From positions 1 through 14,869 of the forward strand of contig JAQICW010000013.1 in assembly GCA_027858355.1 (NCBI GenBank): a stretch of DNA of 14,869 bases, written 5' to 3'. A program made the position numbers and the translations under genes. This document shows positions 626 through 14,734 of this stretch, in pieces; positions within the stretch are counted from its first letter, which is position 1, and each line of letters starts with the position of its first letter. The notes beneath the pieces are model-generated. The model was given only the letters and a program-made list of their open reading frames with translations, was not told the DNA's origin and made no database searches. This stretch comes from Desulfobacula sp. Its GTDB lineage: Bacteria; Desulfobacterota; Desulfobacteria; Desulfobacterales; Desulfobacteraceae.

Positions 626-735
626 ATATTATAAAAAACACTGTGGGGAAATGGCCAGGTATGACGCTCATGGCTTATATAATTGAATAGAAATCACAAG
701 GCTGAAAAAACCCTGTATACTATATGTAGGGGTGC
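626..735 (+). repeat. Diverged dispersed intergenic repeat, copy 1
   Basis: This stretch resembles 12750-12848. Both contain TAAAAAACACT, then TGG, then AATGGCCAG, then a GGCT.ATATAAT block, GAA, AGGCT and finally TATACTA followed a few bases later by ATGTA, in the same order and at nearly the same spacing. By eye the identity is roughly two thirds, with a few small gaps. Both copies lie upstream of plus-strand genes of membrane signalling or transport. The conserved TATACT could be a shared -10 element, but no good -35 is seen at the right distance. The nature of the repeat (promoter module, small RNA, or old mobile element) is unknown. Confidence 0.55.
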
Positions 736-867: not shown

Positions 868-900
868 CTTTTTTTACCAGTTCATGTTGTGTTCATTTTT
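868..900 (+). promoter_or_regulatory. PhoB/OmpR-type direct-repeat operator upstream of the response regulator
   Basis: GTTCAT-N5-GTTCAT (880-896) gives two half sites exactly 11 bp apart, preceded by a T-run and ACC. Eleven-bp direct repeats are the classic binding pattern of OmpR/PhoB-family regulators. Nearly the same string (T-run, ACC, TTCAT, N6, TTCAT) occurs upstream of the PEBP-fusion gene and of tolC, which suggests one regulator binds all three. The -10 element at the expected distance (near 907) is weak, so the exact promoter is uncertain. Confidence 0.55.
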
Positions 901-1059
901 AAATGCTACTTATTGAAATAGTGTGTCGGTATCTTTTTATATTTTGGCTAAAATTTAGTTTGGCGGCACGGATGGCACATAAAAATTGAGCTGAGATAAA
1001 CAACTTCATTTAGATAAAATTAAATGGTATTAAATACCAAACAATTATAAGTGGAAATG

Positions 1060-1731
1060 ATGAGAATACTTGTTGTAGATGATGACAAAAGTCTATGCTG
1101 TACGATTAAACGCGGGTTGGAGGAGAATGCCTTTGCCGTAGATTACGTGCACAATGGTGATGATGCTTTGTACTATGCATCCTCAACCCCGTATGATCTG
1201 ATCATTCTTGATGTGATGATGCCCCTTAAATCAGGCTTTGAAGTTTGCAGGGAACTTCGTTTAAAAAAGGATGACACCCCTGTTTTAATGCTGACGGCCA
1301 AGGATGAAATTGAAGACCGTGTGACAGGACTGGATTTAGGGGCCGATGACTATTTGATAAAACCGTTTGATTTCAGTGAACTGCTGGCAAGAATCCGTGC
1401 GTTGCTGAGACGAAAAGGCAAAAGCCGGTCCCCGAAACTTAAAATTGGTGACTTGTCATTAAATACCGTTACCAGGGAAGTGAGATGGAAAGGGAACCTC
1501 GTTGAGCTGACAACCAAAGAATTTGTAATTCTTCAATATTTGATGCGCAATCCGGATGCTGTTGTTACACGAAGCATGATAGAAGCCCATGCATGGGACT
1601 ATGATTTTGACAGTATCTCCAATCTTGTTGATGTTTACATTCGCCGGATCAGGCAAAAAATTGATCCTGAAGCGGGTAAGAAAATTATCACCACCGTCAG
1701 GGGGGCAGGTTATCGGATGCAAAAGGGATGA
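1060..1731 (+). CDS. OmpR/PhoB-family response regulator
   Basis: With the ATG at 1060 the protein has 223 residues and begins MRILVVDDD, the usual start of the family. In-frame alternatives are ATG 1057 and GTG 1051, but a receiver domain rarely has an extension before MRILVV, and the purine-rich AAGTGGA lies just upstream of 1060. The receiver domain covers residues 1-115: acidic pocket D7-D9, phospho-acceptor D51 in ILDVMMP, T79 in LTAKD and K101 in LIKPF. A winged-helix DNA-binding domain follows (about 125-220), with the typical VDVYIRRIRQKID recognition helix region and a closing TVRGAGYRM. The gene overlaps the kinase start by 4 bp, so the two are probably translationally coupled. It is likely the factor that binds the TTCAT direct repeats upstream of itself, the PEBP-fusion gene and tolC. 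Confidence 0.95.
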   Translation: MRILVVDDDKSLCCTIKRGLEENAFAVDYVHNGDDALYYASSTPYDLIILDVMMPLKSGFEVCRELRLKKDDTPVLMLTAKDEIEDRVTGLDLGADDYLIKPFDFSELLARIRALLRRKGKSRSPKLKIGDLSLNTVTREVRWKGNLVELTTKEFVILQYLMRNPDAVVTRSMIEAHAWDYDFDSISNLVDVYIRRIRQKIDPEAGKKIITTVRGAGYRMQKG

Positions 1732-3194
1732 ATGGATTAAGTATTAAAATTAAATTTACACTCTGGTACCTCACGGTTCTTTCACTCATCCTGATAGTCC
1801 TTGGGACGGGTATTTATTTTACTTTGTCCCACCAGCTTCATTCCTCATTCAATCATTCCTTGAAAAAAAGAGCGGATCAGATATCGGAATTCAGAGATAT
1901 CATTTCCATTGTTGCTGGAGGTACGTTTGAAGAAGAAACAGGAGAATTGATCTCATTTGATTTTTATTTTGCAGATGAGCTTGTGAACATTTCTCCCAGG
2001 CAGATCAAAATCCCTGTCCGAAAAGAATTCATTAACACCGTTCTTGGAGGAGAAAGTCTCTATAGAACTATCCAGATAAATAACGAACCCTTTCAAGTTT
2101 ATGCGGTCCCATATTTGCCTGGCATAGAGAAAATCAGGCTCGATAAATTCAGAATTGGAGAAAAAGATAATCCCGGCCGGGAGGACGTCGGGTTTAAAAG
2201 TACAGAATTACCCAATCAAATCCAAATAGAAAATGCTGCTCTCATGGTTGCCCGGTCCACAACAGATATTGAAATGGCTTTGAAAAAACTGCTTCAAATT
2301 TTACTATTTTCATTCCCAACTACCTTATTTCTATCCGGGTGGGGAGGCATATTTTTGCTGAACCGGATATTGAGGCCCATTGATCAGATTTCACAGACCA
2401 CCAGGAAAATTGGGGAGACGGATTTAACCAAACGAATCAATGTACAGGCAGATGATGAGCTTGGACATCTTGCACAAACGATTAACCTCATGCTGGCCAG
2501 ACTGGAAAAGGCATTTAAAAGACAAAAGGAGTTAACGTCGGATGCCTCCCATGAATTAAGAGCCCCCCTTGCGGTTATCCAGGCAGAGGCGTCCTTGACC
2601 CTGCAAAAAAATCGGGATGCCAAAACCTATAGAAAGTCGATGGAAGTCATTGTTACCGAAGCTGAACGGATGTCTGGGGTAATCAAACAAATATTGTTCC
2701 TGGCCCGAACAGATTCAGACAGACAGACGCGTTCTTTTAAATCTATAGATTTAAACCTGCTCTTATATGATCTTTGTGATGAAATTGATATCCTGTGCCA
2801 GGATAAGGGACTCAAATTGAGATACAGCCCAGGGTCCACCGTAAACATTTTAGGTGATGAAGCACTCTTGCGAAGAGTATTTGTGAATCTTTTGACGAAT
2901 TCAATCCGTTATACACCCATAAATGGAAGCATCACAGTAAACCTCTCCACAGAAAACGGGATGGCAGCGATTAAGTTTACAGACACAGGCATTGGCATCC
3001 CGAATGAAGATGTACCGTATATATTTGAACGGTTTTATCGTGTAGACAAGGCCAGGTCAAGAGAATCAGGCGGAAGCGGACTGGGGTTGTCCATTGCAGA
3101 TCAAATCGTTAAAGCCCATGGCGGTGAAATTCATGTTGAAAGCGAAATGGATAAAGGGAGCACATTTGTTGTAAAGCTGCCTGTGGGATCATGA
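1728..3194 (+). CDS. Membrane sensor histidine kinase (heavy-metal/CusS-like architecture)
   Basis: A complete 488-residue kinase. TM1 is about 10-33, a periplasmic sensor region runs about 35-186, and TM2 is about 188-212. A HAMP domain (about 212-265) starts RILRPIDQISQTTRKIG. The H-box SDASHELRAPLAV has phospho-acceptor H275. The ATPase domain shows the N-box RRVFVNLLTNSIRYTP (N387 and N391), the G1 box DTGIGIP (D419), the F-box ERFYRVDKARS and the G2 box GGSGLGLSIA (about 448-457). All catalytic motifs are intact. HAMP and H-box wording resemble the CusS-type kinases that sense metals or envelope stress, but the periplasmic domain is not one I recognise and the signal is unknown. The last 62 bp are part of a 272-bp duplication whose second copy lies at 7685. 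Confidence 0.95.
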   Translation: MNGLSIKIKFTLWYLTVLSLILIVLGTGIYFTLSHQLHSSFNHSLKKRADQISEFRDIISIVAGGTFEEETGELISFDFYFADELVNISPRQIKIPVRKEFINTVLGGESLYRTIQINNEPFQVYAVPYLPGIEKIRLDKFRIGEKDNPGREDVGFKSTELPNQIQIENAALMVARSTTDIEMALKKLLQILLFSFPTTLFLSGWGGIFLLNRILRPIDQISQTTRKIGETDLTKRINVQADDELGHLAQTINLMLARLEKAFKRQKELTSDASHELRAPLAVIQAEASLTLQKNRDAKTYRKSMEVIVTEAERMSGVIKQILFLARTDSDRQTRSFKSIDLNLLLYDLCDEIDILCQDKGLKLRYSPGSTVNILGDEALLRRVFVNLLTNSIRYTPINGSITVNLSTENGMAAIKFTDTGIGIPNEDVPYIFERFYRVDKARSRESGGSGLGLSIADQIVKAHGGEIHVESEMDKGSTFVVKLPVGS

Positions 3195-3404
3195 TAATCC
3201 ATTCAGTTTATTTATTGTTTTTTCCAGAACTATAATCCAGCGCCATAATTTTTTTACCCATTCATCTTCTGTTCATATTTCATCTTTATACTCTAATAAA
3301 CAATAGGTGATCAAAATTACCCGTTAACCTTTTTTAATAGTGAGGTTCAGATGAAACAGATAATAATAGCAGCAATCGCAATTTCTATGATGATGGTAAC
3401 CCTG
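3133..3404 (+). repeat. 272-bp direct repeat, copy 1 (kinase 3' end + promoter + signal-peptide start)
   Basis: This block matches 7685-7956 at a constant offset of 4552 bp with no gaps and about 14 mismatches by eye (roughly 95% identity). It contains the last codons and stop of the histidine kinase, the TTCAT operator and TATACT -10 element, the ribosome-binding site, and the first 17-18 codons of the PEBP-fusion gene. Because this copy lies in two intact genes, it is probably the source. Confidence 0.95.
3261..3292 (+). promoter_or_regulatory. Promoter and TTCAT operator of the PEBP-fusion gene
   Basis: TTCAT occurs at 3261, 3272 and 3279. The first two are 11 bp apart, as expected for an OmpR/PhoB-type dimer site. 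A good -10 (TATACT, 3287-3292) starts 10 bp after the second half site, so the operator covers the place of a -35 box. This is the arrangement of activator-dependent PhoB-type promoters. It lies in the 156-bp gap after the kinase stop, and the start codon is about 60 bp downstream. Confidence 0.65.
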
Positions 3405-5390
3405 GTTTCGGCAAAACCGAACGAAGGTCTTGAAACCGATGATCGGCAAGAAAGTGAATTCATAGTAAGGAATTCAGCCGTGGCATCGGACGGTTCATTA
3501 TCATCTCAATTTACAGGGGATGGCCCAGGGATGTCAATGCCGGTTGAATGGTCAAACGTGCCTACAGGTACCAAGTATTTTGCATTGAACCTGTGGCATA
3601 TACCAAAACCCATTTCAGATCCAGACCAGGTAAAATCATATTGGCTTGTCTACAATATTCCGTCGGATATTCGCAGCCTTCCTGCCGGTGTTAAAGGGGT
3701 GGGGATAGATGGCTATAACAGTAAGAATAAGACAGGGTATGACCCGATGAGTTCAAAAGGGCCTGGTGTCAAGGAATATAATCTTACACTATACGCGCTT
3801 TCAGCAAAGCCTGTATTCAAAAACACGACAAGGGTTCAACGGTCCGATCTGTTGCAAGCGATAAAGGGCATTCTGCTTGATGAATGCACTCTGAAGTACA
3901 CATATGAAAGGGTGAACAATGATCGGCAGGAAAGTCGAAAAAAAAAACTGGAGGCTTTGACAGCGCCTCAAAAGGAGAATGTCAAAAATATTCTGCGCAG
4001 TTATGACCCGGTGTCACTTACGGCCAAAGATGCCAGGGCTATACATGAGGCATTTCGTAAGGCAGGACTCCGTGGTGGCCCGGCGGCCGCAGATGCCATC
4101 AGGGAGGCTGGTTTTGATCCAGATAAACTGCGCGACCTGGCACCGCCACCGGACGGGGACCGTGACAAAGGGAAAGATAAACAAGGACAAGGTCCAGATA
4201 AATCATCAGGGCAGTATTCAATTGAGCAGGCGATTTCCGACCGGGCACAGTTAACCACAATGGCGTTCTCAGGACTGGCATTTATCACTGGTGATTTTGG
4301 TGCCTCAACATTCATTCCGCCAGGGAAAGTATGTGATTATTTTGGTTTCCAGTATATGCGCGATGTTGATATTGCAAAAAAAGGGCACAATCCAATGTTT
4401 GTGGACAGGGTTGTCGGCAATGTATTGTCCGTTCTTAATGATAAACAAAAACAATTGTTTCGCAATCTGGCCGAGGAGCAGGTTCCCCAGCTCGAGACAC
4501 TGGCCAAAATGCGGTTGCCTTTAATCAAGAGCTTTCACAAGAAATTGGACGGTAATATACCAAATGGCAGCAACGGGCTGAACAAGCAGGCAGTTATAAA
4601 TTATGTGGGTGATATCTTTGCGCAGGATGCAAAGTTAAGCATCCGCCGTGCAGAGGTGATGTCTGCCGTAGCTGCTTCGTTGACTGATGATCAGAAATCT
4701 TATCTGGGAGAAATGAAATTCGGCGATTTTAATTCCTGGCCGGATAAAACAGAAAAGGCCCATCTTGAAAGAGGCAAATCCAAGCTCTTTAATGTGGCTT
4801 ACATGACCTATGCCAGCGAATTTTTCAGCTGGTATGCCGGGTCTGTAGAAGCTGATACATACATATGCCCAGAAAGACAAGGTACATATTTTGGCGGGTT
4901 TTACATGAAGGATATACCTGCGATGAACAAAAAAGATTATGATATCAGTACTTCTATTACCGGGGACAAAGGGGAAGCGTTTTTAAATGATGTCCTTAAT
5001 GACAGGCAGCGGGTATCCATTATTGTGATACTTGATAAACAGTGCAAGCTGCTCGAAGAAATCATTGATGTCCGCCGTGCATTCAGTACAGAACTGCGCA
5101 AACTGCTGGCAGGAAAACAGCTGAACAAAAAAAAGCTGATCGACCTGGGCTACCGTTACGGGGAACTTGATGGGGAATTGTCATGGAATTACGCCATGAC
5201 ATTTGCCGGGGTAAACCGGACGCTTACTGATGAACAAAGGCTTGCGCTGGTAAAATTGCGCAATCTGGAAGGGTACAAGAGCGCGCCATACTACCTCTAT
5301 TCCAGCCCTGTAGAAAAGTTGCCGGAAATGCCCGCTGCAGATCGTTTTTTTTTCGCTCCAAAGCAGCAACCGAAAGTTAAACATGATTAA
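3351..5390 (+). CDS. Exported PEBP (YbhB-like) domain fused into a two-fold repeated LTxxQ-type protein
   Basis: 679 residues; the ATG at 3351 follows TGAGG at good spacing. A signal peptide covers about residues 1-21 (KQ, hydrophobic core, ending LVSA), so the protein is periplasmic or outer-surface. Residues 36-187 resemble the YbhB/YbcL phosphatidylethanolamine-binding fold (FIVRNSAVASDGSLSSQFTG, MPVEWSNVPTGTKYFALNLW, SYWLVYNIPSDIRSLPAGV, YNLTLYAL). A charged linker (about 190-290, ALTAPQKENV, then APPPDGDRDKGKDK) leads to two homologous units, about 306-460 and 488-640. Each has T(F/Y)IxP, YFGF/YFGG-YM(R/K)D, LNDxQ and a closing LTD(D/E)Q, and each has one Cys (C328, C506). LTxxQ motifs recall CpxP/Spy/ZraP-type periplasmic sensors or chaperones, but homology to them is only a suggestion. 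17-bp direct repeats bound the PEBP domain. Position after the kinase suggests an accessory of signal sensing or of the exporter. Function unknown. Confidence 0.85.
   Translation: MKQIIIAAIAISMMMVTLVSAKPNEGLETDDRQESEFIVRNSAVASDGSLSSQFTGDGPGMSMPVEWSNVPTGTKYFALNLWHIPKPISDPDQVKSYWLVYNIPSDIRSLPAGVKGVGIDGYNSKNKTGYDPMSSKGPGVKEYNLTLYALSAKPVFKNTTRVQRSDLLQAIKGILLDECTLKYTYERVNNDRQESRKKKLEALTAPQKENVKNILRSYDPVSLTAKDARAIHEAFRKAGLRGGPAAADAIREAGFDPDKLRDLAPPPDGDRDKGKDKQGQGPDKSSGQYSIEQAISDRAQLTTMAFSGLAFITGDFGASTFIPPGKVCDYFGFQYMRDVDIAKKGHNPMFVDRVVGNVLSVLNDKQKQLFRNLAEEQVPQLETLAKMRLPLIKSFHKKLDGNIPNGSNGLNKQAVINYVGDIFAQDAKLSIRRAEVMSAVAASLTDDQKSYLGEMKFGDFNSWPDKTEKAHLERGKSKLFNVAYMTYASEFFSWYAGSVEADTYICPERQGTYFGGFYMKDIPAMNKKDYDISTSITGDKGEAFLNDVLNDRQRVSIIVILDKQCKLLEEIIDVRRAFSTELRKLLAGKQLNKKKLIDLGYRYGELDGELSWNYAMTFAGVNRTLTDEQRLALVKLRNLEGYKSAPYYLYSSPVEKLPEMPAADRFFFAPKQQPKVKHD
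3439..3455 (+). repeat. 17-bp direct repeat, left copy, bounding the PEBP domain
   Basis: ATGATCGGCAAGAAAGT here matches ATGATCGGCAGGAAAGT at 3919-3935 with one mismatch. It encodes DRQES (residues 31-35) just after the signal peptide, and the second copy encodes DRQES (191-195) just after the PEBP domain. Confidence 0.9.
3919..3935 (+). repeat. 17-bp direct repeat, right copy, bounding the PEBP domain
   Basis: Second copy, exactly 480 bp (160 codons) after the first. The in-frame spacing and the position exactly at both edges of the PEBP domain suggest the domain was inserted with duplication of a target, or can be lost by recombination between the copies. Confidence 0.9.
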
Positions 5391-5668
5391 GATGATCATC
5401 AAAAAAGTCATTCTCTCCTGGGGTCTCGCCTTGTTCCTTTATGGGATTTTTCCCTGGAATAACAGGGGCGTCTGAAATCAAAGAAATAAGCATAGACCAG
5501 GCGGTTCAACTGGCCGTTGAAAACAATCAGGATTTGAGGACGAGGCATCTTATGAAATCGCCCGCCATGAATTGTCCTCGTCTGACTATACGGCACTTCG
5601 GCAGGAGCAGCAGGTCATCTTTGATACGGTGAGCGCCTATCTTGATGTTGTCAAGCAACTGTAGGAAA
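5383..5668 (+). pseudogene. Relic of a tolC-like gene: original start, then internal deletion and truncation
   Basis: An ATG at 5383 overlaps the stop of the preceding gene by 8 bp and begins a signal-peptide-like stretch, MIKMIIKKVILSWGLALFLY. After a frame change near the T/C run at 5446-5455, the sequence from 5462 matches the functional tolC from 7957 (TGASEIKEISIDQAVQLA), with two mismatches in the first 76 bp. At GGATTTGA (5530-5537) it jumps: the next bases match 8223 onward. The skipped 190 bp in the intact gene are bounded by the same 8-mer (8025-8032 and 8215-8222), so this is a deletion between short direct repeats, and 190 is not a multiple of three. Similarity ends about 5668, where CGG has become the stop TAG. 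No functional product is expected. The relic shows that tolC once followed the PEBP gene directly with its own signal peptide. Confidence 0.9.
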
Positions 5669-5782
5669 GGGGGCACGGCGGGGAGCGCAAGCCTGCCAAA
5701 CAAGGCTGATAGGTAAATATTGCCGCATTATGAACCTGATATCTTCTTTCTTTTGGTGAACAATAATAAATTTTACTGAAAT
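5669..5782. other. Short spacer between the tolC relic and the IS-like element
   Basis: No gene is visible. It contains a weak AGCCT/AGGCT hairpin (about 5691-5708) and does not match the functional tolC, so it is foreign to that gene. Confidence 0.4.
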
Positions 5783-6789
5783 AGTCCCATAGGATTGGTT
5801 GGGAAATTTCGAAAGAACGCATCCCTGACATGAAAATAAATTTGCATAAAAATGCCAGAACCACCCCAGCGCAGCGTGCTTTTATTCAGAATGCCGATCA
5901 GATGAGTATCTCTGAACTTGCCGACAGGATCGGAGTGAGTGAAACCACTATCCGGCGATGGAAGAACCGTAATTTTGTCTTTGATAAACCCCATACCCCC
6001 AAAAAGGTCAGAACAGCAATGACACCTGAGCAGGAGATCCTGGTTATTATTCTCAGGATATGCCTCCGCCTTGGTCTTGACGATCTCCAACAGGTGGTAC
6101 AGGAATTTATTTGTCCCGACTGTTCAAGATCCGGTCTGAACCGACTTTTAAAACGGTACCATATTTCCAGGCTCGCCCCGTTTAAAAAGGCTTTGCCAAG
6201 GAAACCTGCTATTAATCTGAATGATTATCGCGGCACGTATTTTTATTATAACAAGGTGATTTTACCCCCCATGCCCGGCACCCGGACACCTGTCCATGTG
6301 CAGACCCTGGACTATTCTTTTAAATATTTTTATGCAGACATCTGCAGGGCTCCTAAGCCGCCAGCCCTGTTTTTTATTAAACAGGCCATCCATCATTTTC
6401 TCCTGCATGTTATGGGAATCATATTTACCGATCCCATTGTTCTTTTTGACTCAGATATGCTTATCCGGCAATCAGTTCATCTCCACAATCAGCTTATCAA
6501 AAACTACTGCCAGGGTCATAACCTAATTCCCTGGTACCTGAAAACCGTTCCTGGCCCGACCCTGGAAAGGCTTAAGCAGACAACTGTATCCATAGAAAAA
6601 AGATATCACCTCCCAAAGATCAACCTGCCCTGTTTTGACAATGCCAGCCTGCTGAAAAATATCTGGATGTATAATACAAAGATAAGCCTGACAGCATTGA
6701 AAAATAACACACCCAAACAGGCCATTCAAAAATATTATGCCCATTTTCCAAACAGCTTTAAAAAAAATCCAAACCAATCCTTTGGGACA
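5783..6789 (+). mobile_element. Decaying IS481-like insertion sequence with imperfect terminal inverted repeats
   Basis: The ends are inverted: the left end reads AGTCCCATAGGATTGGTTGG from 5783, and the reverse complement of the right end reads TGTCCCAAAGGATTGGTTTG from 6789. About 17 of the first 20 positions agree. The enclosed 1007 bp is a normal size for IS481-family elements, and the right end begins with TGT, as is common in that family. No target-site duplication is recognisable beside the ends, which fits age or a later rearrangement. The element sits between the tolC relic and the EF-hand gene, inside the rearranged segment, and may have taken part in the rearrangement. Confidence 0.7.
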
Positions 6790-6846
6790 TCATTGCCACC
6801 CCAAAATACTGATCAGGAACTGGTATCTTTTTTGTTTGTCCATTGA
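5830..6846 (+). CDS. IS481-like transposase, probably inactive (first catalytic Asp is Asn)
   Basis: 338 residues. The N-terminus has a helix-turn-helix (about 27-47, ISELADRIGVSETTIRRWKN) followed by HTPKKVRTAMTPEQE and the LGLDDLQQVV..SRSGLNRLLKRY segment typical of IS481-family transposases. In the DDE region the family pattern 'hHVDVKYLPKM' reads FYYNKVILPPM, so the first Asp is N141. The second position is FTD (D201) in FTDPIVLF in place of the usual TDNGKEF, and the glutamate is in TLER (E246) in place of NGMVERF. The tail (WMYNTKISLTALKNNTPKQAI) still fits the family. The frame reads through the right terminal inverted repeat, so residues after about 320 come from outside the element. 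An open but catalytically altered frame suggests recent decay, or possibly a retained DNA-binding role. The CDS itself is certain as an open frame; activity is doubtful. Confidence 0.75.
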   Translation: MKINLHKNARTTPAQRAFIQNADQMSISELADRIGVSETTIRRWKNRNFVFDKPHTPKKVRTAMTPEQEILVIILRICLRLGLDDLQQVVQEFICPDCSRSGLNRLLKRYHISRLAPFKKALPRKPAINLNDYRGTYFYYNKVILPPMPGTRTPVHVQTLDYSFKYFYADICRAPKPPALFFIKQAIHHFLLHVMGIIFTDPIVLFDSDMLIRQSVHLHNQLIKNYCQGHNLIPWYLKTVPGPTLERLKQTTVSIEKRYHLPKINLPCFDNASLLKNIWMYNTKISLTALKNNTPKQAIQKYYAHFPNSFKKNPNQSFGTSLPPQNTDQELVSFLFVH

Positions 6847-6990
6847 TCAGACAGCTTTGATTTTGATCTTTGAGCTGCCAATAATCGTTAACCCAAAAAA
6901 AAAGAAGGTGATGTTTATGGTGTGAAATAAAAAAAAATTTAAAAAATTAGATGTGATTGACAATGTAATTTTAATTTTAAGGAGGTTAAA

Positions 6991-7623
6991 ATGAATATTC
7001 AAGGAATTGGACAATCATTTTCAGCCTATCAGTCGATGAGCATACGCGGTAGTCAGGGGATGAATAGCAGTTTTGAGCCACCCAGTGCGGACAGCATCAT
7101 GGAAAATGATGATGCCAACCTGGATGGTGTATTAACGGTTGATGAAACCCCCATGTCCGAAGAGATGTTTTCCGATGCAGACTCAGATTCAGATGGCCAG
7201 CTGAACACCAGTGAGCTTGAAGAAATGCTTTCCAACGGCCCTCCGCCGCCGCCCATCATTGGCGGTGGCGGAGAGCAGGGCATGATGGGCGGTGGAATGA
7301 GCGGTGCCCAGTCTATTCTGGATGCTGAAGATACGGATGAAGACGGCAGTATCAGCTCTGAAGAATCCAGCCTGTCAAGTGAGGTGTTTTCACTCCTGGA
7401 CACAAATAAAGACGGTGTGATTTCCCAGGATGAAATAGAAGCTGCCCAGCCTGATAAGCAGGAAAACATGAACATGATGCAGGGATTGTCTTCGAATCAG
7501 ACAGTCTCCCAGGACCAGGCAATAAATGTTTACCGTCAGGTCATGGAATCTTCAATGACGAATTTTTCCAGCACGGATTATGCTGATTCCAATCTGGGCA
7601 GTTTTCTCCAGACCATGGCATAA
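6991..7623 (+). CDS. Four-EF-hand calcium-binding protein
   Basis: 210 residues with a strong AAGGAGG ribosome-binding site before the ATG. Four canonical 12-residue loops of the DxDxDGxIxxxE type are visible: D41-E52 (DANLDGVLTVDE), D64-E75 (DSDSDGQLNTSE), D114-E125 (DTDEDGSISSEE) and D137-E148 (DTNKDGVISQDE). Loops are spaced 23 residues apart within each pair, as in paired EF-hand lobes. The two lobes are joined by a PPPPP and Gly/Met-rich linker (about 84-106). There is no signal peptide or membrane segment. The protein is highly acidic. Calcium binding is well supported by family knowledge; the biological role is unknown. It sits alone between the IS-like element and the kinase relic, with its own terminator, and may be a later arrival in the locus. 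Confidence 0.9.
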   Translation: MNIQGIGQSFSAYQSMSIRGSQGMNSSFEPPSADSIMENDDANLDGVLTVDETPMSEEMFSDADSDSDGQLNTSELEEMLSNGPPPPPIIGGGGEQGMMGGGMSGAQSILDAEDTDEDGSISSEESSLSSEVFSLLDTNKDGVISQDEIEAAQPDKQENMNMMQGLSSNQTVSQDQAINVYRQVMESSMTNFSSTDYADSNLGSFLQTMA

Positions 7624-7634
7624 TCCTTTCAATT

Positions 7635-7662
7635 AGAGGCGGTTGAAAGACCGCCTCTTTTC
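7635..7662 (+). terminator. Rho-independent terminator of the EF-hand gene
   Basis: A perfect 9-bp stem AGAGGCGGT / ACCGCCTCT with a 6-nt loop (TGAAAG) is followed by a short T-run. It begins 12 bp after the stop codon. Confidence 0.92.
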
Positions 7663-7684
7663 GAATCCTTTTGAATATCAGGAT

Positions 7685-7746
7685 ATGTTAAAAGCAAAAT
7701 GGATAAAGGGAGCACATTTATTGTAAAGCTGCCTGTGGGATCATGA
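7685..7746 (+). pseudogene. Relic of the histidine-kinase 3' end
   Basis: Codons for SKMDKGSTFIVKLPVGS and a stop match the last residues of the kinase (SEMDKGSTFVVKLPVGS). There is no start or upstream kinase sequence, so it is a by-product of the duplication. Confidence 0.92.
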
Positions 7747-7812
7747 TAATCCATTCAATTTATTTATTATTTTTTCCAGAACTATAATCCAGCGCCATAT
7801 TTTTTTTACCCA

Positions 7813-7844
7813 TTCATCTTCTGTTCATATTTCATCTTTATACT
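7813..7844 (+). promoter_or_regulatory. Promoter and TTCAT operator of the exporter operon (duplicated copy)
   Basis: TTCAT at 7813, 7824 and 7831 and TATACT at 7839-7844 are identical to the elements before the PEBP-fusion gene. It should give the exporter operon the same regulation by the upstream response regulator. Confidence 0.65.
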
Positions 7845-7902
7845 CTAATAAACAATAGGTGATCAAAATTACCAGTTAATTTTTTTTAATAATGAGGTTC
7901 AG

Positions 7903-9261
7903 ATGAAACAGATAATAATGGCAGCAATCGCCATTTCTTTGATGATGGTAACGCTGACAGGGGCGTCTGAAATCAAAAAAATAAGCATAGACCAGGCGGT
8001 TCAATTGGCCGTTGAAAACAATCAGGATTTGAAAACGGCAAAAAATAATGTTCGTTATTCAACCTTAACCCTTGAAAAGGAAAAGAATGATTTCCTCCCC
8101 CAGGTTACCGGCACCATCAATAGCCGTATAACGAGCGACTACGAACAATCCGCTTCAAAGCGCAACTCATATACTTCCGACGCCGGCGTGGCAGCCAGCC
8201 TGAACCTCTTTAACGGATTTGAGGACGAGGCATCTTATGAAATCGCCCGCCATGAATTGTCCTCGTCTGACTATACGGCACTTCGGCAGGAGCAGCAGGT
8301 CATCTTTGATACGGTGAGCGCCTATCTTAATGTTGTCAAGCAACTGCGGGAAATCGTTATTGCCCGTGAAAATCTGACATACAACAGACAGAAGGAAAAC
8401 CAGATCAAAGCCTTTTATGATGCTGGTAAAAGCCCTGTCATAGACCTTTATCAGCAGCAGGCTGAAACCGCAGATGCAAAATCCGATCTTATTGCAGCCG
8501 AAAACAGTCTGAAGAAAGCCGGGCTTGAACTGGTCAGTCTTATGGGCATTAAGGAATTTGACGGGGTTAAGGTGACAATGCCTGAATTCAGGCTTTCAGC
8601 CGTGGCAGGTGAAATAAACAGCAAAAGCATGATACAAAAAGCCTTTCAGACCCGGGCTGATCTTCTTGCGCTGAAAAAAAACGTTTCAGCAAAACAAGCC
8701 GGGGTAAGGGAGGCAAAATCCGGCAGATACCCTTCTGTAGACCTGAACGTCGGCGTGACAGGGGCCTATACCGATCAATATGATGAGAATGCAAGATCCC
8801 GTTCCGGGCAGGACAATCTGGATTCTTATGTGGGGGTTAGAATTTGCCTGCCCCTCTTTGACAAACACCTGACACGAATTCGTACAGGACAAGCCCGAAT
8901 CGACAAACAGACCGCTGTGCTCTCCCTTGAAAAATTAGAAGACCAGATCCGGGTGGAGCTTGGTGAGGCAGTGGCTGATTACAAAAGCGCATGCGAAACC
9001 ATCAAAGCGGTCGAAACCCGGCTTCTTTATGCCCAAAAAGCCCTGGAATCCGCTGATCAGCGCTACAAAGTCGGGAAATCCGGTCTGACTGAATTGATCC
9101 TCATCCGATCCGACCTGGTGGAAGCCAGAAACAAAGTCGTTGAAGCACAAATAGATCAACTGCTGAAAAACGTATCCATATTTTTTTATAGAGGAGATTT
9201 GGGATTATCCCATCTTCTCTTTCATTCGGTCGTCTCTCCGGCGGAAAAGGAATTGTCATGA
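7903..9261 (+). CDS. TolC-family outer-membrane efflux channel with borrowed signal peptide
   Basis: 452 residues. The signal peptide (about 1-22, ending LTGASE) is coded by the duplicated start of the PEBP-fusion gene. The mature part begins IKKISIDQAVQLAVENNQDL, the usual first helix of the outer-membrane efflux family. The two-fold repeated coiled-coil/barrel organisation is visible: LNLFNGFEDEASYEIARHEL near 105-120 in the first half, then the second half with QAGVREAKSGRYPSVDLNVGV and ALESADQRYKVGKSGLTELI. It forms the trimeric outer-membrane duct of a tripartite exporter. The gene overlaps the adaptor start by 4 bp (ATGA). The length is normal. The start is fixed by TGAGG at good spacing, as in copy 1. 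The substrate is unknown. Confidence 0.93.
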   Translation: MKQIIMAAIAISLMMVTLTGASEIKKISIDQAVQLAVENNQDLKTAKNNVRYSTLTLEKEKNDFLPQVTGTINSRITSDYEQSASKRNSYTSDAGVAASLNLFNGFEDEASYEIARHELSSSDYTALRQEQQVIFDTVSAYLNVVKQLREIVIARENLTYNRQKENQIKAFYDAGKSPVIDLYQQQAETADAKSDLIAAENSLKKAGLELVSLMGIKEFDGVKVTMPEFRLSAVAGEINSKSMIQKAFQTRADLLALKKNVSAKQAGVREAKSGRYPSVDLNVGVTGAYTDQYDENARSRSGQDNLDSYVGVRICLPLFDKHLTRIRTGQARIDKQTAVLSLEKLEDQIRVELGEAVADYKSACETIKAVETRLLYAQKALESADQRYKVGKSGLTELILIRSDLVEARNKVVEAQIDQLLKNVSIFFYRGDLGLSHLLFHSVVSPAEKELS

Positions 9262-10469
9262 AAATGGTAAAGATCGGAACGAAACTGTTAAAAGTCCTGT
9301 TCATGGCATGTGGCCTGCTTTTCATCATCCTTTGTGCCCAAAGATTCTGGGTGGAAGCCTCATTCCGGGACCCGTCTGAGCCATTACAATTTCGGGTGGA
9401 AGAAATCAAAAGGGGAAGCATGGAAAATACGGTTTCTTGCACCGGAAGCCTTTCAGCTGTGGGAACCGTTGAGGTGGGGACCCAGGTGTCGGGTACCATA
9501 AAAAGGGTGTTTGTGGACTATAATGACCGTGTGACAAAGGGACAGATTCTTGCTGAACTCGACCTTGACCTGTTTAAAGCAGCCGTGGATATGGCCAGGG
9601 CCTCGGTGATCCGTACACAGGCTCTCCACAAACAGGCCCTGGCAGAGTATCAAAGAAATAAATCGTTATACGAGCAGGGCTATCTTTCATCCCAGGAGAT
9701 CCTGGTCTACGAGACTTCAAAGGAAACCTCAAGGGCAGAACTTTTGTCGGCAAAAGCTGCTGTGATCACGGCAAAAACGAACCTTACCAATGCCCAGATC
9801 AAATCTCCCATAAACGGTGTTATCCTGGAAAGAAATATCGAAGCCGGGCAGACTGTGGCTGCCAGTTTAAGCACGCCCACGCTGTTCATCATTGCAGACG
9901 ATCTGTCAAATATGGAAATTGAGGCCAGCGTAGATGAAAGTGATATCGGAATGGTAAAAACGGGCCAGCCCGTGAGATTTACCGTTCAATCCTATCCCGA
10001 CGATATCTTTACAGGAACCGTGAATCAGATTCAGATGAACCCAACAGAAACCTCTAATGTTGTCACCTATACTGTGATTGTGGGTGCACCGAACAAAGCG
10101 GGAAAATTTTTGCCGGGCATGACCGCTACTGCAGATTTTGTAGTGGAAACAGCGGCAAATGAACTGATAGTGTCCAATGCGGCGCTGAGCTTTACGCCTG
10201 ATGACAGGGACACTTGCGATGATCCCGGGATCTATATTCTTGACGGAAGAACACCCAGACGAATTTTGGTTACCACCGGCATATCAAGCAGTATGGCCAC
10301 GGTAATAAAAAATACCAGCCTGATTGCCGGGACATCTGTGATTGTCGGAAAAAATGTTGAAAAAGAAGAAAATTCGACGGGGATTTTGTCAAAGATATTC
10401 TCCATGTCCCCCGGAGGTGGCTCCCCACAGGGAGGTCCTCCCGGGGGCGGCGGTGGGGCGAAAAGATAG
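9258..10469 (+). CDS. MacA-like periplasmic adaptor (membrane fusion protein)
   Basis: 403 residues. An N-terminal membrane anchor (about 9-28) is followed by the lipoyl/barrel-sandwich half VEVGTQVSGTIKRVFVDYND (71-90), a coiled-coil hairpin (about 104-180) and the second lipoyl half IKSPINGVILERNIEAGQTV (181-200). A beta-barrel region (DESDIGMVKTGQPVRFTVQ, about 226-244) and a membrane-proximal domain follow. Such adaptors link an inner-membrane ABC permease to TolC. It overlaps tolC by 4 bp and is followed by the ATPase. Odd feature: a low-complexity tail, PGGGSPQGGPPGGGGGAKR (385-403), which is not a usual part of MacA as far as I know. Confidence 0.93.
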   Translation: MKMVKIGTKLLKVLFMACGLLFIILCAQRFWVEASFRDPSEPLQFRVEEIKRGSMENTVSCTGSLSAVGTVEVGTQVSGTIKRVFVDYNDRVTKGQILAELDLDLFKAAVDMARASVIRTQALHKQALAEYQRNKSLYEQGYLSSQEILVYETSKETSRAELLSAKAAVITAKTNLTNAQIKSPINGVILERNIEAGQTVAASLSTPTLFIIADDLSNMEIEASVDESDIGMVKTGQPVRFTVQSYPDDIFTGTVNQIQMNPTETSNVVTYTVIVGAPNKAGKFLPGMTATADFVVETAANELIVSNAALSFTPDDRDTCDDPGIYILDGRTPRRILVTTGISSSMATVIKNTSLIAGTSVIVGKNVEKEENSTGILSKIFSMSPGGGSPQGGPPGGGGGAKR

Positions 10470-10495: not shown

Positions 10496-11212
10496 ATGAA
10501 AACCATTCAGCTCAAAGATATAAAAAAAACATTTCACCTGGGAGGGAAAATTGTCAAAGCCCTGGACGGCATTGGCCTAAACATCCCAAAAAAGGACTTT
10601 CTGGCAATTATCGGAACCTCCGGGTCAGGCAAATCAACCCTCATGAACATCCTGGGCTGTCTGGATCAGGCAGACCAGGGTGAGTATCTTCTCGAGGAAG
10701 TGCCGATCAATCAATTGGATAAAAATGCATTGGCTGATATCCGAAACCAAAGGATCGGATTTGTGTTCCAGGGGTATAACCTGCTCTCCAGGACAACCGC
10801 CCTGGAAAATGTGCAACTGCCCCTTATTTACAGAAGGAAAAACCGGATAGATGATCCTGTAAAAAAGGCTGAGGCCGCGCTTGATATGGTCGGGCTCAAA
10901 GATAGGATGCACCACGAACCCAACCAGCTCTCAGGCGGCCAGCAACAGCGAGTCGCCATTGCCAGAGCATTGGTGACGGACCCCGCTATTATTTTGGCTG
11001 ATGAACCCACTGGAAACCTTGACAGCCGAACCACGGAGGAGATCCTTGCCCTGTTCCAGCAACTCAATGATCAAGGCATCACCATTGTCCTTGTCACCCA
11101 TGAAATGAATGTGGCTGAGCATGCAAAACATGTGGTTGATGTCTCAGACGGCCGCATTATAAACACGTATGAGGTTGCCCATCGGCGATATGCCTTGCGC
11201 CAACCGGCTTGA
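10496..11212 (+). CDS. ABC transporter ATPase (MacB/LolD type)
   Basis: 238 residues with all ABC motifs: Walker [10 protein letters not shown] (40-48), Q-loop VFQGYNLL (Q92), signature LSGGQQQR (145-152), Walker [12 protein letters not shown] (E170) and H-loop H202. The wording QADQGEYLL and [10 protein letters not shown] is typical of the MacB/LolD subfamily, which couples ATP hydrolysis to FtsX-like permeases. Here the ATPase is separate from the permease, unlike E. coli MacB, where they are fused. The gene begins 26 bp after the adaptor stop, preceded by AGGGA, and ends 25 bp before the permease start. Confidence 0.95.
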
Positions 11213-11237
11213 TACAAACCAAACGGAAAATATTAAC

Positions 11238-12455
11238 ATGAAATTAAGACAATTTATCATTGTTGCCTTTAAGAATATTACCCGAAACAAGATGAGAAGT
11301 CTGCTCACCATGTTGGGAATAATTATTGGACTTGCATCGGTGATTGCCCTGGTCGCCCTGGGTAAAGGGTCCCAGGCAGACATTGAGGCCAAAATATCTA
11401 CCCTTGGAACCAATTTAATCATGGTGAAACCGGGCAGCACCCATACCCGCGGTGTCAGGGGTGGAGCCGGCACCCGAAGCTGCCTGACCATGGATGATGT
11501 TGCCGCAATTTCCAGGCTCGCCCGGGATGTGAAACATGTATCCCCTCTTATCCGGGTGTCGGGTCAGGTGATTGCCGGTAACGCAAACTGGAACACCTCC
11601 ATTGAGGGCGTGGACATTAGCTATCCCATGATACGCAACTATGAAATTGCCCAGGGTGCTTTTTTCACATCCAGGGATATAAAGGTGAAAGCCAAGGTGG
11701 CGGTCCTGGGGCAAACGGTTGTGGACGAGCTTTTCCCCGGACTGAATCCCCTGGGCACAAGTATCCGCATCGGAACTGTCCCCTTTGATGTGGTGGGTGT
11801 TCTTTCACCAAAAGGCCAGTCCGCCATGGGAAATGATCAGGATGATATTATTTTTGTTCCGTCCTCAACTGCGCTTTACCGCATGGGTGACGGTGAAACC
11901 GTTCATGACATCATGGCCAGCGCCGTTTCCAAGTCAGCCATAGATCAGGCCCAGGCTGAAATGGCAAGCATTCTTCGTGCAACACATGGGATCACTTCCG
12001 GCGAGGAGGATGATTTTGAAATCCGCAACCAGACCGAAATTGTCAGCACAGCCACCCAGGTGACCACCACCCTCACCATGCTTCTCAGTGCTGTTGCCGG
12101 GGTTTCTCTGCTGGTCGGGGGGATTGGGGTGATGAATATCATGCTGGTTTCCGTCACTGAGAGAACCCGTGAAATAGGTATCCTCATTGCAGTTGGTGCC
12201 CGGAGTTCCGATATCCTGCTGCAATTCCTTATTGAAGCTGTTATCCTCAGTCTTTCCGGCGGAATCATTGGTATTTTAGCTGGTGTAGGCATTGCTTTCG
12301 GTCTGGGTACTGTCATGGGCATTCAGGTAATTTTTGAACCATTCATGATATTTCTCAGTGTCGGGTTTACGGCACTCGTTGGGATCTTTTTCGGTTATTA
12401 CCCAGCGAAAAAGGCATCGCTACTCAACCCAATTGAAGCGATGAGATATGATTAG
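11238..12455 (+). CDS. MacB/FtsX-type ABC permease
   Basis: With the ATG at 11238 the protein has 405 residues and begins MKLRQFIIVAFKNITRNKMRS, the usual start of the family. An in-frame ATG at 11169 would add 23 unrelated residues overlapping the ATPase gene, so the later start is preferred. TM1 is about 20-42. A large periplasmic domain (about 45-275) has the MacB signature regions (VALGKGSQADIE, GTNLIMVKPG). Three C-terminal helices follow at about 279-305, 326-356 and 367-386, with the conserved TERTREIGILIAVGAR loop and closing PIEAMRYD. It works with the ATPase, the adaptor and TolC to move substrates from the periplasm to the outside. The ribosome-binding site is weak, so coupling to the upstream gene is likely. 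Confidence 0.95.
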   Translation: MKLRQFIIVAFKNITRNKMRSLLTMLGIIIGLASVIALVALGKGSQADIEAKISTLGTNLIMVKPGSTHTRGVRGGAGTRSCLTMDDVAAISRLARDVKHVSPLIRVSGQVIAGNANWNTSIEGVDISYPMIRNYEIAQGAFFTSRDIKVKAKVAVLGQTVVDELFPGLNPLGTSIRIGTVPFDVVGVLSPKGQSAMGNDQDDIIFVPSSTALYRMGDGETVHDIMASAVSKSAIDQAQAEMASILRATHGITSGEEDDFEIRNQTEIVSTATQVTTTLTMLLSAVAGVSLLVGGIGVMNIMLVSVTERTREIGILIAVGARSSDILLQFLIEAVILSLSGGIIGILAGVGIAFGLGTVMGIQVIFEPFMIFLSVGFTALVGIFFGYYPAKKASLLNPIEAMRYD

Positions 12456-12472: not shown

Positions 12473-12550
12473 AAAGCAAGTGAGTAATATAAAGGCGAGC
12501 CTTAATGGTATGATCAATCAGTAGTCAAATAACAGAAAATACCAATGGCT

Positions 12551-12621
12551 TCTTTCACCAGTACTCGCTTTTAAAAATAATTATAAACCACCACATCTGG
12601 TATTGACAATATTTTTGTTTC
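12551..12621 (+). repeat. Short dispersed repeat, left copy
   Basis: TCTTTCACCAGT (12551-12562) and ACATCTGGTATT (12593-12604) recur with the same spacing at 14666-14734. By eye about 70% of bases agree between the copies with small gaps. The left copy also has an AATACCA (about 12539) inverted to TGGTATT (12598-12604). Confidence 0.55.
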
Positions 12622-12749
12622 AGATTAAAAATTCCATTATATGGGAGAGGCCAAAATCAAATTTCCAAATTTCCTATTAACTTTTATTGGAGAGTAACAG
12701 GATTATTTAAAATCAAAATCTGGGGATTCTGGAAAAATGATCTTTTTAT

Positions 12750-12848
12750 ATAAAAAACACTCTGGAAGAATGGCCAGAAAAGATGTCTGCGGCTGATATA
12801 ATGGAATTGAAAGGCCAGGCTTCTTGTAAAAAATATACTAAGGATGTA
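12750..12848 (+). repeat. Diverged dispersed intergenic repeat, copy 2
   Basis: Counterpart of 626-735: TAAAAAACACTCTGG, AATGGCCAG, GGCTGATATAATGGAA, AGGCT and TATACTA occur in the same order. It lies immediately upstream of the membrane sensor-like gene. Confidence 0.55.
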
Positions 12849-14586: not shown

Positions 14587-14665
14587 AGTAGCAGTCTGGA
14601 AAGCTCGGGTAATCAATCATGCTATCATCAGTGACGAATCATTTTCAAGCATTGGGAGATTATTT

Positions 14666-14734
14666 TCTTTCACCAGTCCGGACCTTTTAATAAAATCCAA
14701 ATCACAACATCTGGTATTTTAAATTTCATTGTTC
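14666..14734 (+). repeat. Short dispersed repeat, right copy
   Basis: Matches 12551-12621. The two copies are direct repeats flanking the sensor-like/TauE pair. Confidence 0.5.

What the first reader, a model, noticed from the sequence alone, without database searches (positions are those of the whole stretch)
7685..8040. Exporter gene has captured another gene's promoter and signal peptide
The 272 bp from the kinase 3' end through the promoter to codon 17-18 of the PEBP-fusion gene occur again, about 95% identical and gap-free, directly fused to the mature part of tolC. The hybrid signal peptide MKQIIMAAIAISLMMVTLTG comes from the PEBP gene, while the relic at 5383 shows a different original tolC signal peptide. 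The result is a regulated promoter for the exporter in place of simple read-through. The conserved TTCAT/TATACT elements, compared with drift in the useless kinase relic, suggest selection on the promoter.
Basis: partly seen in the sequence, partly recalled or inferred. Interest (0 to 1): 0.75.

Follow-up and report, generated by a model that had tools for sequence, protein, structure and literature searches.

The report
Exporter gene with borrowed control region
In a sulfate-reducer-like bacterium, a TolC exporter gene carries a copied control region plus most of the export signal of a neighbouring gene, so that it probably stays under the same stress sensor although its original copy is broken; the kind of event is known, the regulon it preserves appears undescribed.

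Summary
3133-3404 and 7685-7956 are gap-free copies (14 differences in 272), the second joined in frame to tolC. Codons 1-18 of the exporter signal peptide come from the PEBP-fusion gene; the cleavage region (TGA|SE) is tolC's own. A broken tolC with native-type signal peptide overlaps the PEBP stop at 5383, so PEBP and tolC were once adjacent. New here: the control region holds a direct repeat, TTCAT-N6-TTCAT, 10 bp before a -10 hexamer. It occurs exactly three times in the window: before the response-regulator gene, PEBP and tolC. Relatives carry it before the orthologous regulator (5 of 7 genomes, regulator 62-72% identical), before genes sharing the PEBP protein's LTxxQ-type domain, and in one genome before a NodT-macAB-PEBP operon. 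Best reading: a regulon-preserving operon split by duplication, loss of PEBP from copy two and decay of the first tolC. Binding, transcription and order of events are inferred. Promoter capture by duplication is known; this is a new variant.

The parts
881..912 (+). TTCAT-N6-TTCAT box with N10 and a weak -10, upstream of the response-regulator gene
1060..1731 (+). OmpR/PhoB-type response regulator (heavy-metal CopR/CzcR-like; ATG start chosen by me, the ORF list starts at GTG 1051)
   Evidence: Pfam Response_reg + Trans_reg_C; TIGR01387 252 bits, below cutoff 279.2
1728..3194 (+). sensor histidine kinase
   Evidence: HAMP, HisKA, HATPase_c; 90% homologue P0241 on the 5,769,677-bp contig
3133..3404 (+). 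first copy of the repeat: kinase 3' end, box, -10, leader, RBS, PEBP codons 1-18
3261..3292 (+). box TTCATCTTCTGTTCAT + N10 + TATACT before the PEBP-fusion gene
3351..5390 (+). secreted PEBP-fusion protein with five LTxxQ-like motifs
   Evidence: PF01161, LTXXQ below its cutoff, motif scan
5383..5668 (+). broken tolC: native-type signal peptide with a one-base frameshift, 190-bp internal deletion at a 13-bp repeat, right edge at 5661-5668
5751..7632 (+). transposase-like gene (5830-6846) plus EF-hand gene (6991-7623): a two-gene unit found together elsewhere
   Evidence: blastn 71% over 1930 bp to L116/L126; also paired in L118/L127
7635..7662 (+). G+C-rich hairpin followed by a short run of four T after the EF-hand gene: possible weak terminator upstream of the tolC promoter
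   Evidence: read by eye from the sequence; not listed by the terminator scan, which asks for five T
7685..7956 (+). second copy of the repeat, fused in frame to tolC
7813..7844 (+). box and -10 of the tolC promoter, identical to the PEBP one
7903..9261 (+). TolC-family outer-membrane channel with hybrid signal peptide (18 PEBP residues, then TGA|SE of TolC)
   Evidence: PF02321
9258..10469 (+). MacA-like periplasmic adaptor
10496..11212 (+). MacB-like ABC ATPase
11169..12455 (+). MacB-like permease (ORF as listed; it overlaps the ATPase gene, a later ATG at 11238 is possible)
   Evidence: MacB_PCD + FtsX

Best explanation
A two-component system drives three promoters in this locus through one repeat box: its own, that of a secreted PEBP/LTxxQ-fusion protein and that of a TolC-MacA-MacB-like exporter. 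The phosphorylated regulator is expected to bind TTCAT-N6-TTCAT (11-bp period) as a head-to-tail dimer over the -35 region, 10 bp before the -10, and to recruit RNA polymerase. Originally tolC followed PEBP and was read from the PEBP promoter. A duplication spanning kinase 3' end to tolC 5' part, followed by in-frame loss of the PEBP body from the second copy, put tolC directly behind a copy of that promoter, RBS and signal-peptide n/h region, keeping TolC's own cleavage site. The first tolC decayed and a transposase-like/EF-hand unit now sits at the joint. The result is an operon split into two transcription units of one regulon. Shown: repeat, fusion, relic, boxes and their recurrence in relatives. 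Inferred: binding, activation, export, duplication and order of events.
For: Repeat, joints and relic. TTCAT-N6-TTCAT occurs 3 times in the window, each before a relevant gene; the longer pattern TTCATN4TGTTCATNTTT likewise 3 times, 0 expected in 200 shuffles. Upstream of regulators 62-72% identical it occurs in 5 of 7 genomes (G105, G213, G077, G163, G283; absent in G154; only 76 bp available in G061), and in none of 2 regulators of 52% identity and none of 4 other regulators beside related exporters. It stands before genes sharing the LTxxQ-type domain of the PEBP fusion in G105, G213 (two) and G077, and before a NodT-macA-macB-PEBP operon in G283. Box + N10 + TANNNT in 10 whole genomes: 17 matches, 10 of them at these loci (G105 3 of 3, one of these before pilus-type genes; G213 3 of 3; G283 2 of 2; G077 2 of 3), reversed control 0. 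In nine upstream regions spacer 6 occurs 11 times, each other spacer from 0 to 15 at most 3 times. Recognition helices are nearly identical in the box genomes. The PEBP fusion lies beside MacAB genes elsewhere (L001, L082).
Against: No binding or transcript data. G154 has nearly the same recognition helix but no box before its regulator. In the relatives an exporter behind the box was seen in one genome only (G283, NodT-type channel); G105 has the box and the regulator, but its tolC-macA-macB genes (L098) lie elsewhere beside another regulator without box. The box-bearing neighbours in G105, G213 and G077 match only residues about 185-670 of the window protein, not its PEBP domain. The 10-genome pattern was written after seeing the sites, so only its scarcity elsewhere is independent. 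Promoter copies differ by 14 of 272, relic and tolC by 3 of 200 or 5 of 207 (p = 0.04 or 0.16), not what one duplication date predicts most simply. The inserted unit lies exactly at the supposed joint, which needs a coincidence or extra deletions. The sigma-70 scan misses this promoter and lists other weak matches upstream (7595-7624, 7721-7750, 7743-7770).
Confidence: 0.68

Rival explanations
1. The second copy came by transfer or recombination from a related strain: two whole loci, about 5% diverged, lay side by side and decayed in complementary ways (first lost tolC-macAB, second lost the regulator genes and PEBP).
For: The second copy shares with the 5,769,677-bp relative 4 of the 5 residues at which the two copies differ (kinase VKSK, signal peptide M6 and L13), and divergence differs between the promoter copies and the tolC copies.
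Against: The two copies share with each other kinase-tail residues absent from that relative; only five residues can be polarised; no TolC hit on that relative's contig is among the 120 listed of 153.
Confidence: 0.2
2. A small cassette (kinase 3' end to codon 18) was copied ectopically in front of an already displaced tolC, without a larger duplication.
For: The repeat is sharply bounded on both sides and no further piece of kinase, PEBP or tolC is left in 5669-7684 (one chance-like 16-bp match).
Against: It does not explain why tolC itself exists twice, nor why the repeated pieces are just the two ends of one kinase-to-tolC segment.
Confidence: 0.13
3. Assembly artefact or strain chimera of a metagenome contig.
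For: The window seems to be a whole 14.9-kb contig and holds long repeats.
Against: The fusion joint and the left edge have no shared sequence and the relic's deletion only 13 bp, too short to mislead an assembler; the fusion frame is open over 452 codons.
Confidence: 0.05
4. The captured promoter is inert and the exporter is read from elsewhere, or the hybrid gene is itself on its way out.
For: No expression data; the simple sigma-70 scan does not pick this promoter and lists weak matches upstream of it.
Against: Identical box and -10 in both copies, spacing kept across genomes; tolC, macA, ATPase and permease frames are open.
Confidence: 0.1

Closest known systems
Promoter capture by tandem duplication (rnk-citG duplication activating citT in the E. 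coli long-term experiment; PMC5918244, passages read; histidine genes of Salmonella, as cited in PMC11111574, passages read)
   Same: A duplication puts a gene (citT: a transporter) behind a copy of a neighbour's promoter.
   Different: There the promoter brings new control. Here the captured promoter belongs to the same regulon, the signal-peptide n/h region moved too, and the first tolC copy is a relic.
BaeSR regulon of E. coli (spy, acrD, mdtABCD-baeSR; PMC12046405, passages read)
   Same: One two-component system controls a periplasmic chaperone (Spy, an LTxxQ-type protein by recall) and TolC-dependent exporters.
   Different: Other regulator subfamily, MacAB-like ABC exporter, PEBP fusion instead of Spy, other box.
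OmpR/PhoB-type tandem-dimer sites (PhoP of Mycobacterium tuberculosis, 7-bp repeats with a 4-bp spacer; PMC4832192, passages read; PhoB pho box, recalled)
   Same: Two direct repeats with an 11-bp period.
   Different: Half-site TTCAT. I found no named box of this kind, but looked only in PMC by the terms.

Membership tests
OmpR/PhoB family response regulator | Receiver plus winged-helix effector | tested here: met
   PF00072 and PF00486 above cutoff
OmpR/PhoB family response regulator | Direct-repeat site with about 11-bp period before target promoters | tested here: met
   (sequence only)
OmpR/PhoB family response regulator | Binding of the regulator to that site | not testable with these tools
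   needs footprinting or gel shift
CopR/CzcR/SilR heavy-metal regulators | Score above TIGR01387 cutoff | tested here: not met
   252 bits, cutoff 279.2
BaeSR | BaeR/BaeS equivalog score | tested here: not met
   BaeR 146 of 380 bits, BaeS 187 of 500 and 176 of 603
MacAB-TolC exporter | OEP channel, HlyD-type adaptor, ABC ATPase and MacB_PCD/FtsX permease in a row | tested here: met
   Pfam matches above cutoff for all four
MacAB-TolC exporter | NCBIfam cutoffs for TolC, MacA and MacB | tested here: not met
   TIGR01844 151 of 225, PRK11578 135 of 342, PRK10535 247 and 271 of 966, the last a one-gene model of the two-gene MacB here; so called MacAB-like
Promoter capture by tandem duplication | Second promoter copy fused to the target gene | tested here: met
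Promoter capture by tandem duplication | Intact duplicate or its direct ancestor seen | tested here: inconclusive
   only relics remain; no closely related intact locus found in the genomes searched

The most novel reading that the evidence does not exclude
An undescribed envelope-stress regulon of Desulfobacterota (TTCAT-N6-TTCAT-N10 promoter, copper-type two-component system, PEBP/LTxxQ-domain proteins, TolC-MacAB-like exporter) in which the whole control unit, from box to signal-peptide h-region, was moved as one portable piece, so that an operon was split without leaving its regulon and the channel's own cleavage site was kept.
Probability: 0.5. Interest if true: 0.6.

Novelty: new variant of a known kind. 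Interest (0 to 1): 0.5.

Why it matters
It is a natural, partly readable record of how an operon can be split while each part keeps the same regulator, with relics that show which signal peptide came first. It also gives a testable binding box for a little-known stress system of sulfate reducers and ties a widespread PEBP/LTxxQ-fusion family, for which I found no study, to a TolC-MacAB-like exporter.

Tried and rejected
Whole genome of the window: not held. Viral contigs with TolC: no relative. Plasmids with the PEBP region: one record, 7% of the query. The best PEBP match in the Desulfobacula MAG (L047) is a fragment among unrelated genes. AlphaFold model of the PEBP fusion is weak (pLDDT 66); Foldseek gave no hit at E 0.001, and the only confident-looking rows among the 50 shown were of a PEBP homologue (3n08, probability 1.00, E 0.12-0.13); a profile search of solved structures gave one marginal hit. 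Selection from the pairwise counts: rejected. No PADLOC family for the PEBP fusion or EF-hand protein; weak ones for the transposase-like protein. Paper searches found the general mechanism but, in the titles and abstracts listed, not this regulon or this fusion; PMC open-licence papers only.

On checking, I corrected: the domain coverage of the box-bearing neighbours, the strength of the hairpin, the pattern behind each box count, the MacAB cutoffs and the follow-up of the extra pattern matches. The rivals overlap with it and with one another, so the odds do not add to one.

Full report
What is there. The window seems to be one whole 14,869-bp contig (longest contig of P0001 and P0121). Named relatives of its TolC and kinase are mostly Desulfobacterota (Desulfobacula, Desulfoplanes, Desulfobacteraceae); the PEBP fusion has relatives in many phyla. 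Order on the + strand: response regulator (1060-1731), histidine kinase (1728-3194), PEBP-fusion gene (3351-5390), broken tolC (5383-5668), transposase-like gene (5830-6846), EF-hand gene (6991-7623), repeat copy (7685-7956), tolC (7903-9261), macA-like (9258-10469), ABC ATPase (10496-11212) and MacB-type permease (11169-12455).

The repeat. 3133-3404 and 7685-7956 align without gaps with 14 substitutions. The copy begins inside the kinase's last codons and ends after codon 18 of PEBP, where it meets, in frame, the tolC base homologous to 5462. The hybrid signal peptide is MKQIIMAAIAISLMMVTL (PEBP) plus TGA|SE (tolC), so TolC keeps its own cleavage region (the cleavage site is a rule-of-thumb reading, no predictor was run). 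Among the 240 listed homologues only P0001, P0002 and P0121 have this start. None of the TolC relatives P0122-P0132 has it; several read like the relic.

The relic. 5462-5542 and 5530-5668 match tolC 7957-8037 and 8215-8353; they overlap by 13 bp, the footprint of a 190-bp deletion between short direct repeats. The relic also has a one-base frameshift before the mature part and ends at 5661-5668. Its ATG overlaps the PEBP stop. PEBP and tolC were therefore neighbours in this lineage.

The box. Both promoter copies contain TTCATCTTCTGTTCAT, 10 bp, TATACT, unchanged. The same direct repeat stands 179 bp before the response-regulator ATG. TTCAT-N6-TTCAT occurs nowhere else in the window, and a longer form of it is never met in 200 shuffles. 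I searched for the regulator in 389 genomes of the order: 9 matched at E 1e-75. Of the 7 that are 62-72% identical, 5 have the box upstream (G105, G213, G077, G163, G283); G154 does not, and for G061 only 76 bp upstream exist. The 2 at 52% and 4 other regulators beside related exporters, taken as controls, have none within 250 bp. Resampled stretches hit 1-22 times in 3000. The box also precedes genes of the same LTxxQ-domain family in G105, G213 (two genes) and G077; these match residues about 185-670 of the window protein and show no PEBP-domain match. In G283 it precedes the divergent NodT-macA-macB-PEBP operon, whose last gene does contain a PEBP domain. G154's contig has boxes elsewhere (L095 188 and 2547), the first with an off-pattern -10 and facing the contig end.

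Genome-wide. Over 10 whole genomes (about 54 Mb) box + N10 + TANNNT matches 17 times, 10 of them at these loci, one of the ten before pilus-type genes just after the G105 kinase; the reversed control matches 0 times. Matches not at these loci: G077 C832 (before a repeat-rich protein), G163 1, G001 2, G015 2, G395 1. The last six were only compared with the window proteins: five show nothing, one (L108, G001) has a 32% piece of PEBP domain about 1.2 kb away on the other strand. G163's regulator site has an 11-bp gap to its -10 and is not in the count of 17. In an alignment of 14 sites (second window copy left out; the G105 pilus-side site and G154's site 188 included) the base after the second TTCAT is followed by TT (13 and 14 of 14) and the -10 shows T 13, A 13 and final T 11 of 14. 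Recognition helices are nearly identical in the box genomes and in G154, and differ in the three other regulators aligned (G344, G386, L080).

The exporter in the regulon. In relatives, an exporter behind the box was seen in one genome (G283). In G105 the tolC-macA-macB genes (L098) lie on another contig beside another regulator, without box. A full PEBP fusion between MacA- and MacB-type genes was seen in L001.

History. A kinase 90% identical and a PEBP 91% identical lie on one 5,769,677-bp contig (equal length), on which no TolC hit is listed (120 of 153). Three other relatives have kinase and TolC on contigs of equal length (5318, 24427, 42221), which I read as the same contigs; none of these lengths is among the listed 120 of 1751 PEBP hits, though a diverged PEBP gene below that list is possible. 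So TolC seems tied to this two-component system with or without PEBP. The two repeated pieces are the two ends of one segment, kinase 3' end to tolC 5' part, as a tandem duplication would leave; loss of the PEBP body from copy two then made the fusion. The transposase-like and EF-hand genes form a unit also found together in G060 (71% over 1930 bp) and G044, in other surroundings, so they are probably a later insert at or near the joint. Against a single duplication: the promoter copies differ more than the tolC copies (14 of 272 against 3 of 200 or 5 of 207; p = 0.04 or 0.16), and the second copy agrees with the 5.77-Mb relative at 4 of 5 differing residues. A transferred or recombined second copy is the main rival.

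Box to -10: 1 change in 60, elsewhere 13 in 212, p = 0.32. Kinase relic: 3 in 62 against 11 in 210, p = 1.0. The relic has not drifted more than the rest. Function of the box rests on its recurrence in other genomes, not on these counts.

How it probably works. By analogy with OmpR/PhoB-type regulators, which bind direct repeats as tandem dimers (PMC4832192, passages read), the activated regulator would bind at the -35 position of all three promoters and raise regulator, PEBP-fusion protein and exporter together, much as BaeR of E. coli controls spy and exporter genes (PMC12046405, passages read). A hairpin with four T after the EF-hand gene (7635-7662, read by eye; not listed by the scan) may reduce read-through into tolC. 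None of this is measured.

Novelty. Promoter capture by duplication is well known (PMC5918244 and PMC11111574, passages read). A variant in which the captured promoter belongs to the same regulon and takes the signal-peptide n/h region with it did not appear in my searches, nor did the regulon box. These cover open-licence PMC papers only and I saw listings and passages, not whole texts.

Noticed in passing
window 5751-7632; L116/L126, L118/L127: Transposase-like gene and EF-hand gene travel as a pair (71% over 1930 bp to G060; also paired in G044). At E 1e-20 the transposase-like gene is found in 19 of 84 family genomes, at one place in 18 of them; in the other 8 loci fetched no EF-hand gene was found beside it. 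It looks more like a low-copy or domesticated unit than a busy insertion sequence.
   Followed up: partly
P0288, P0300, P0315, P0341; L127: Some relatives of this kinase carry fused EF-hand domains, and in G044 the EF-hand gene is followed by another kinase-regulator pair: a possible calcium or metal link.
   Followed up: no
window 3351-5390; L001-L051: The PEBP-fusion/LTxxQ-domain family is spread over many phyla (51 loci); 17 of these 51 loci also hold a kinase and a regulator match. The conserved region has LTxxQ-like motifs and no clear solved fold.
   Followed up: partly
L001 3414-8889; L082 3007-9991: PEBP fusion within or at the end of macA-macB operons (MacA-PEBP-ATPase-MacB in a Bacteroidetes MAG; NodT-MacA-ATPase-MacB-PEBP in G283).
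   Followed up: partly
L092 6983: In G105 a third box directly after the kinase precedes a run of genes that look like type IV pilus minor pilins and PilY1 (names by eye).
   Followed up: no
window 630-693 and 12749-12812; 12550-12619 and 14665-14733: Diverged direct repeats (75-77%) flank the whole locus and, separately, the two genes after the permease; perhaps remnants of mobile ends.
   Followed up: no
L047 2219-2584: A 92% identical piece of the PEBP-fusion gene lies alone among unrelated genes in a Desulfobacula MAG.
   Followed up: partly
P0091, P0291: A PEBP-list protein and a kinase-list protein share the contig length 128,435, perhaps another linked pair.
   Followed up: no
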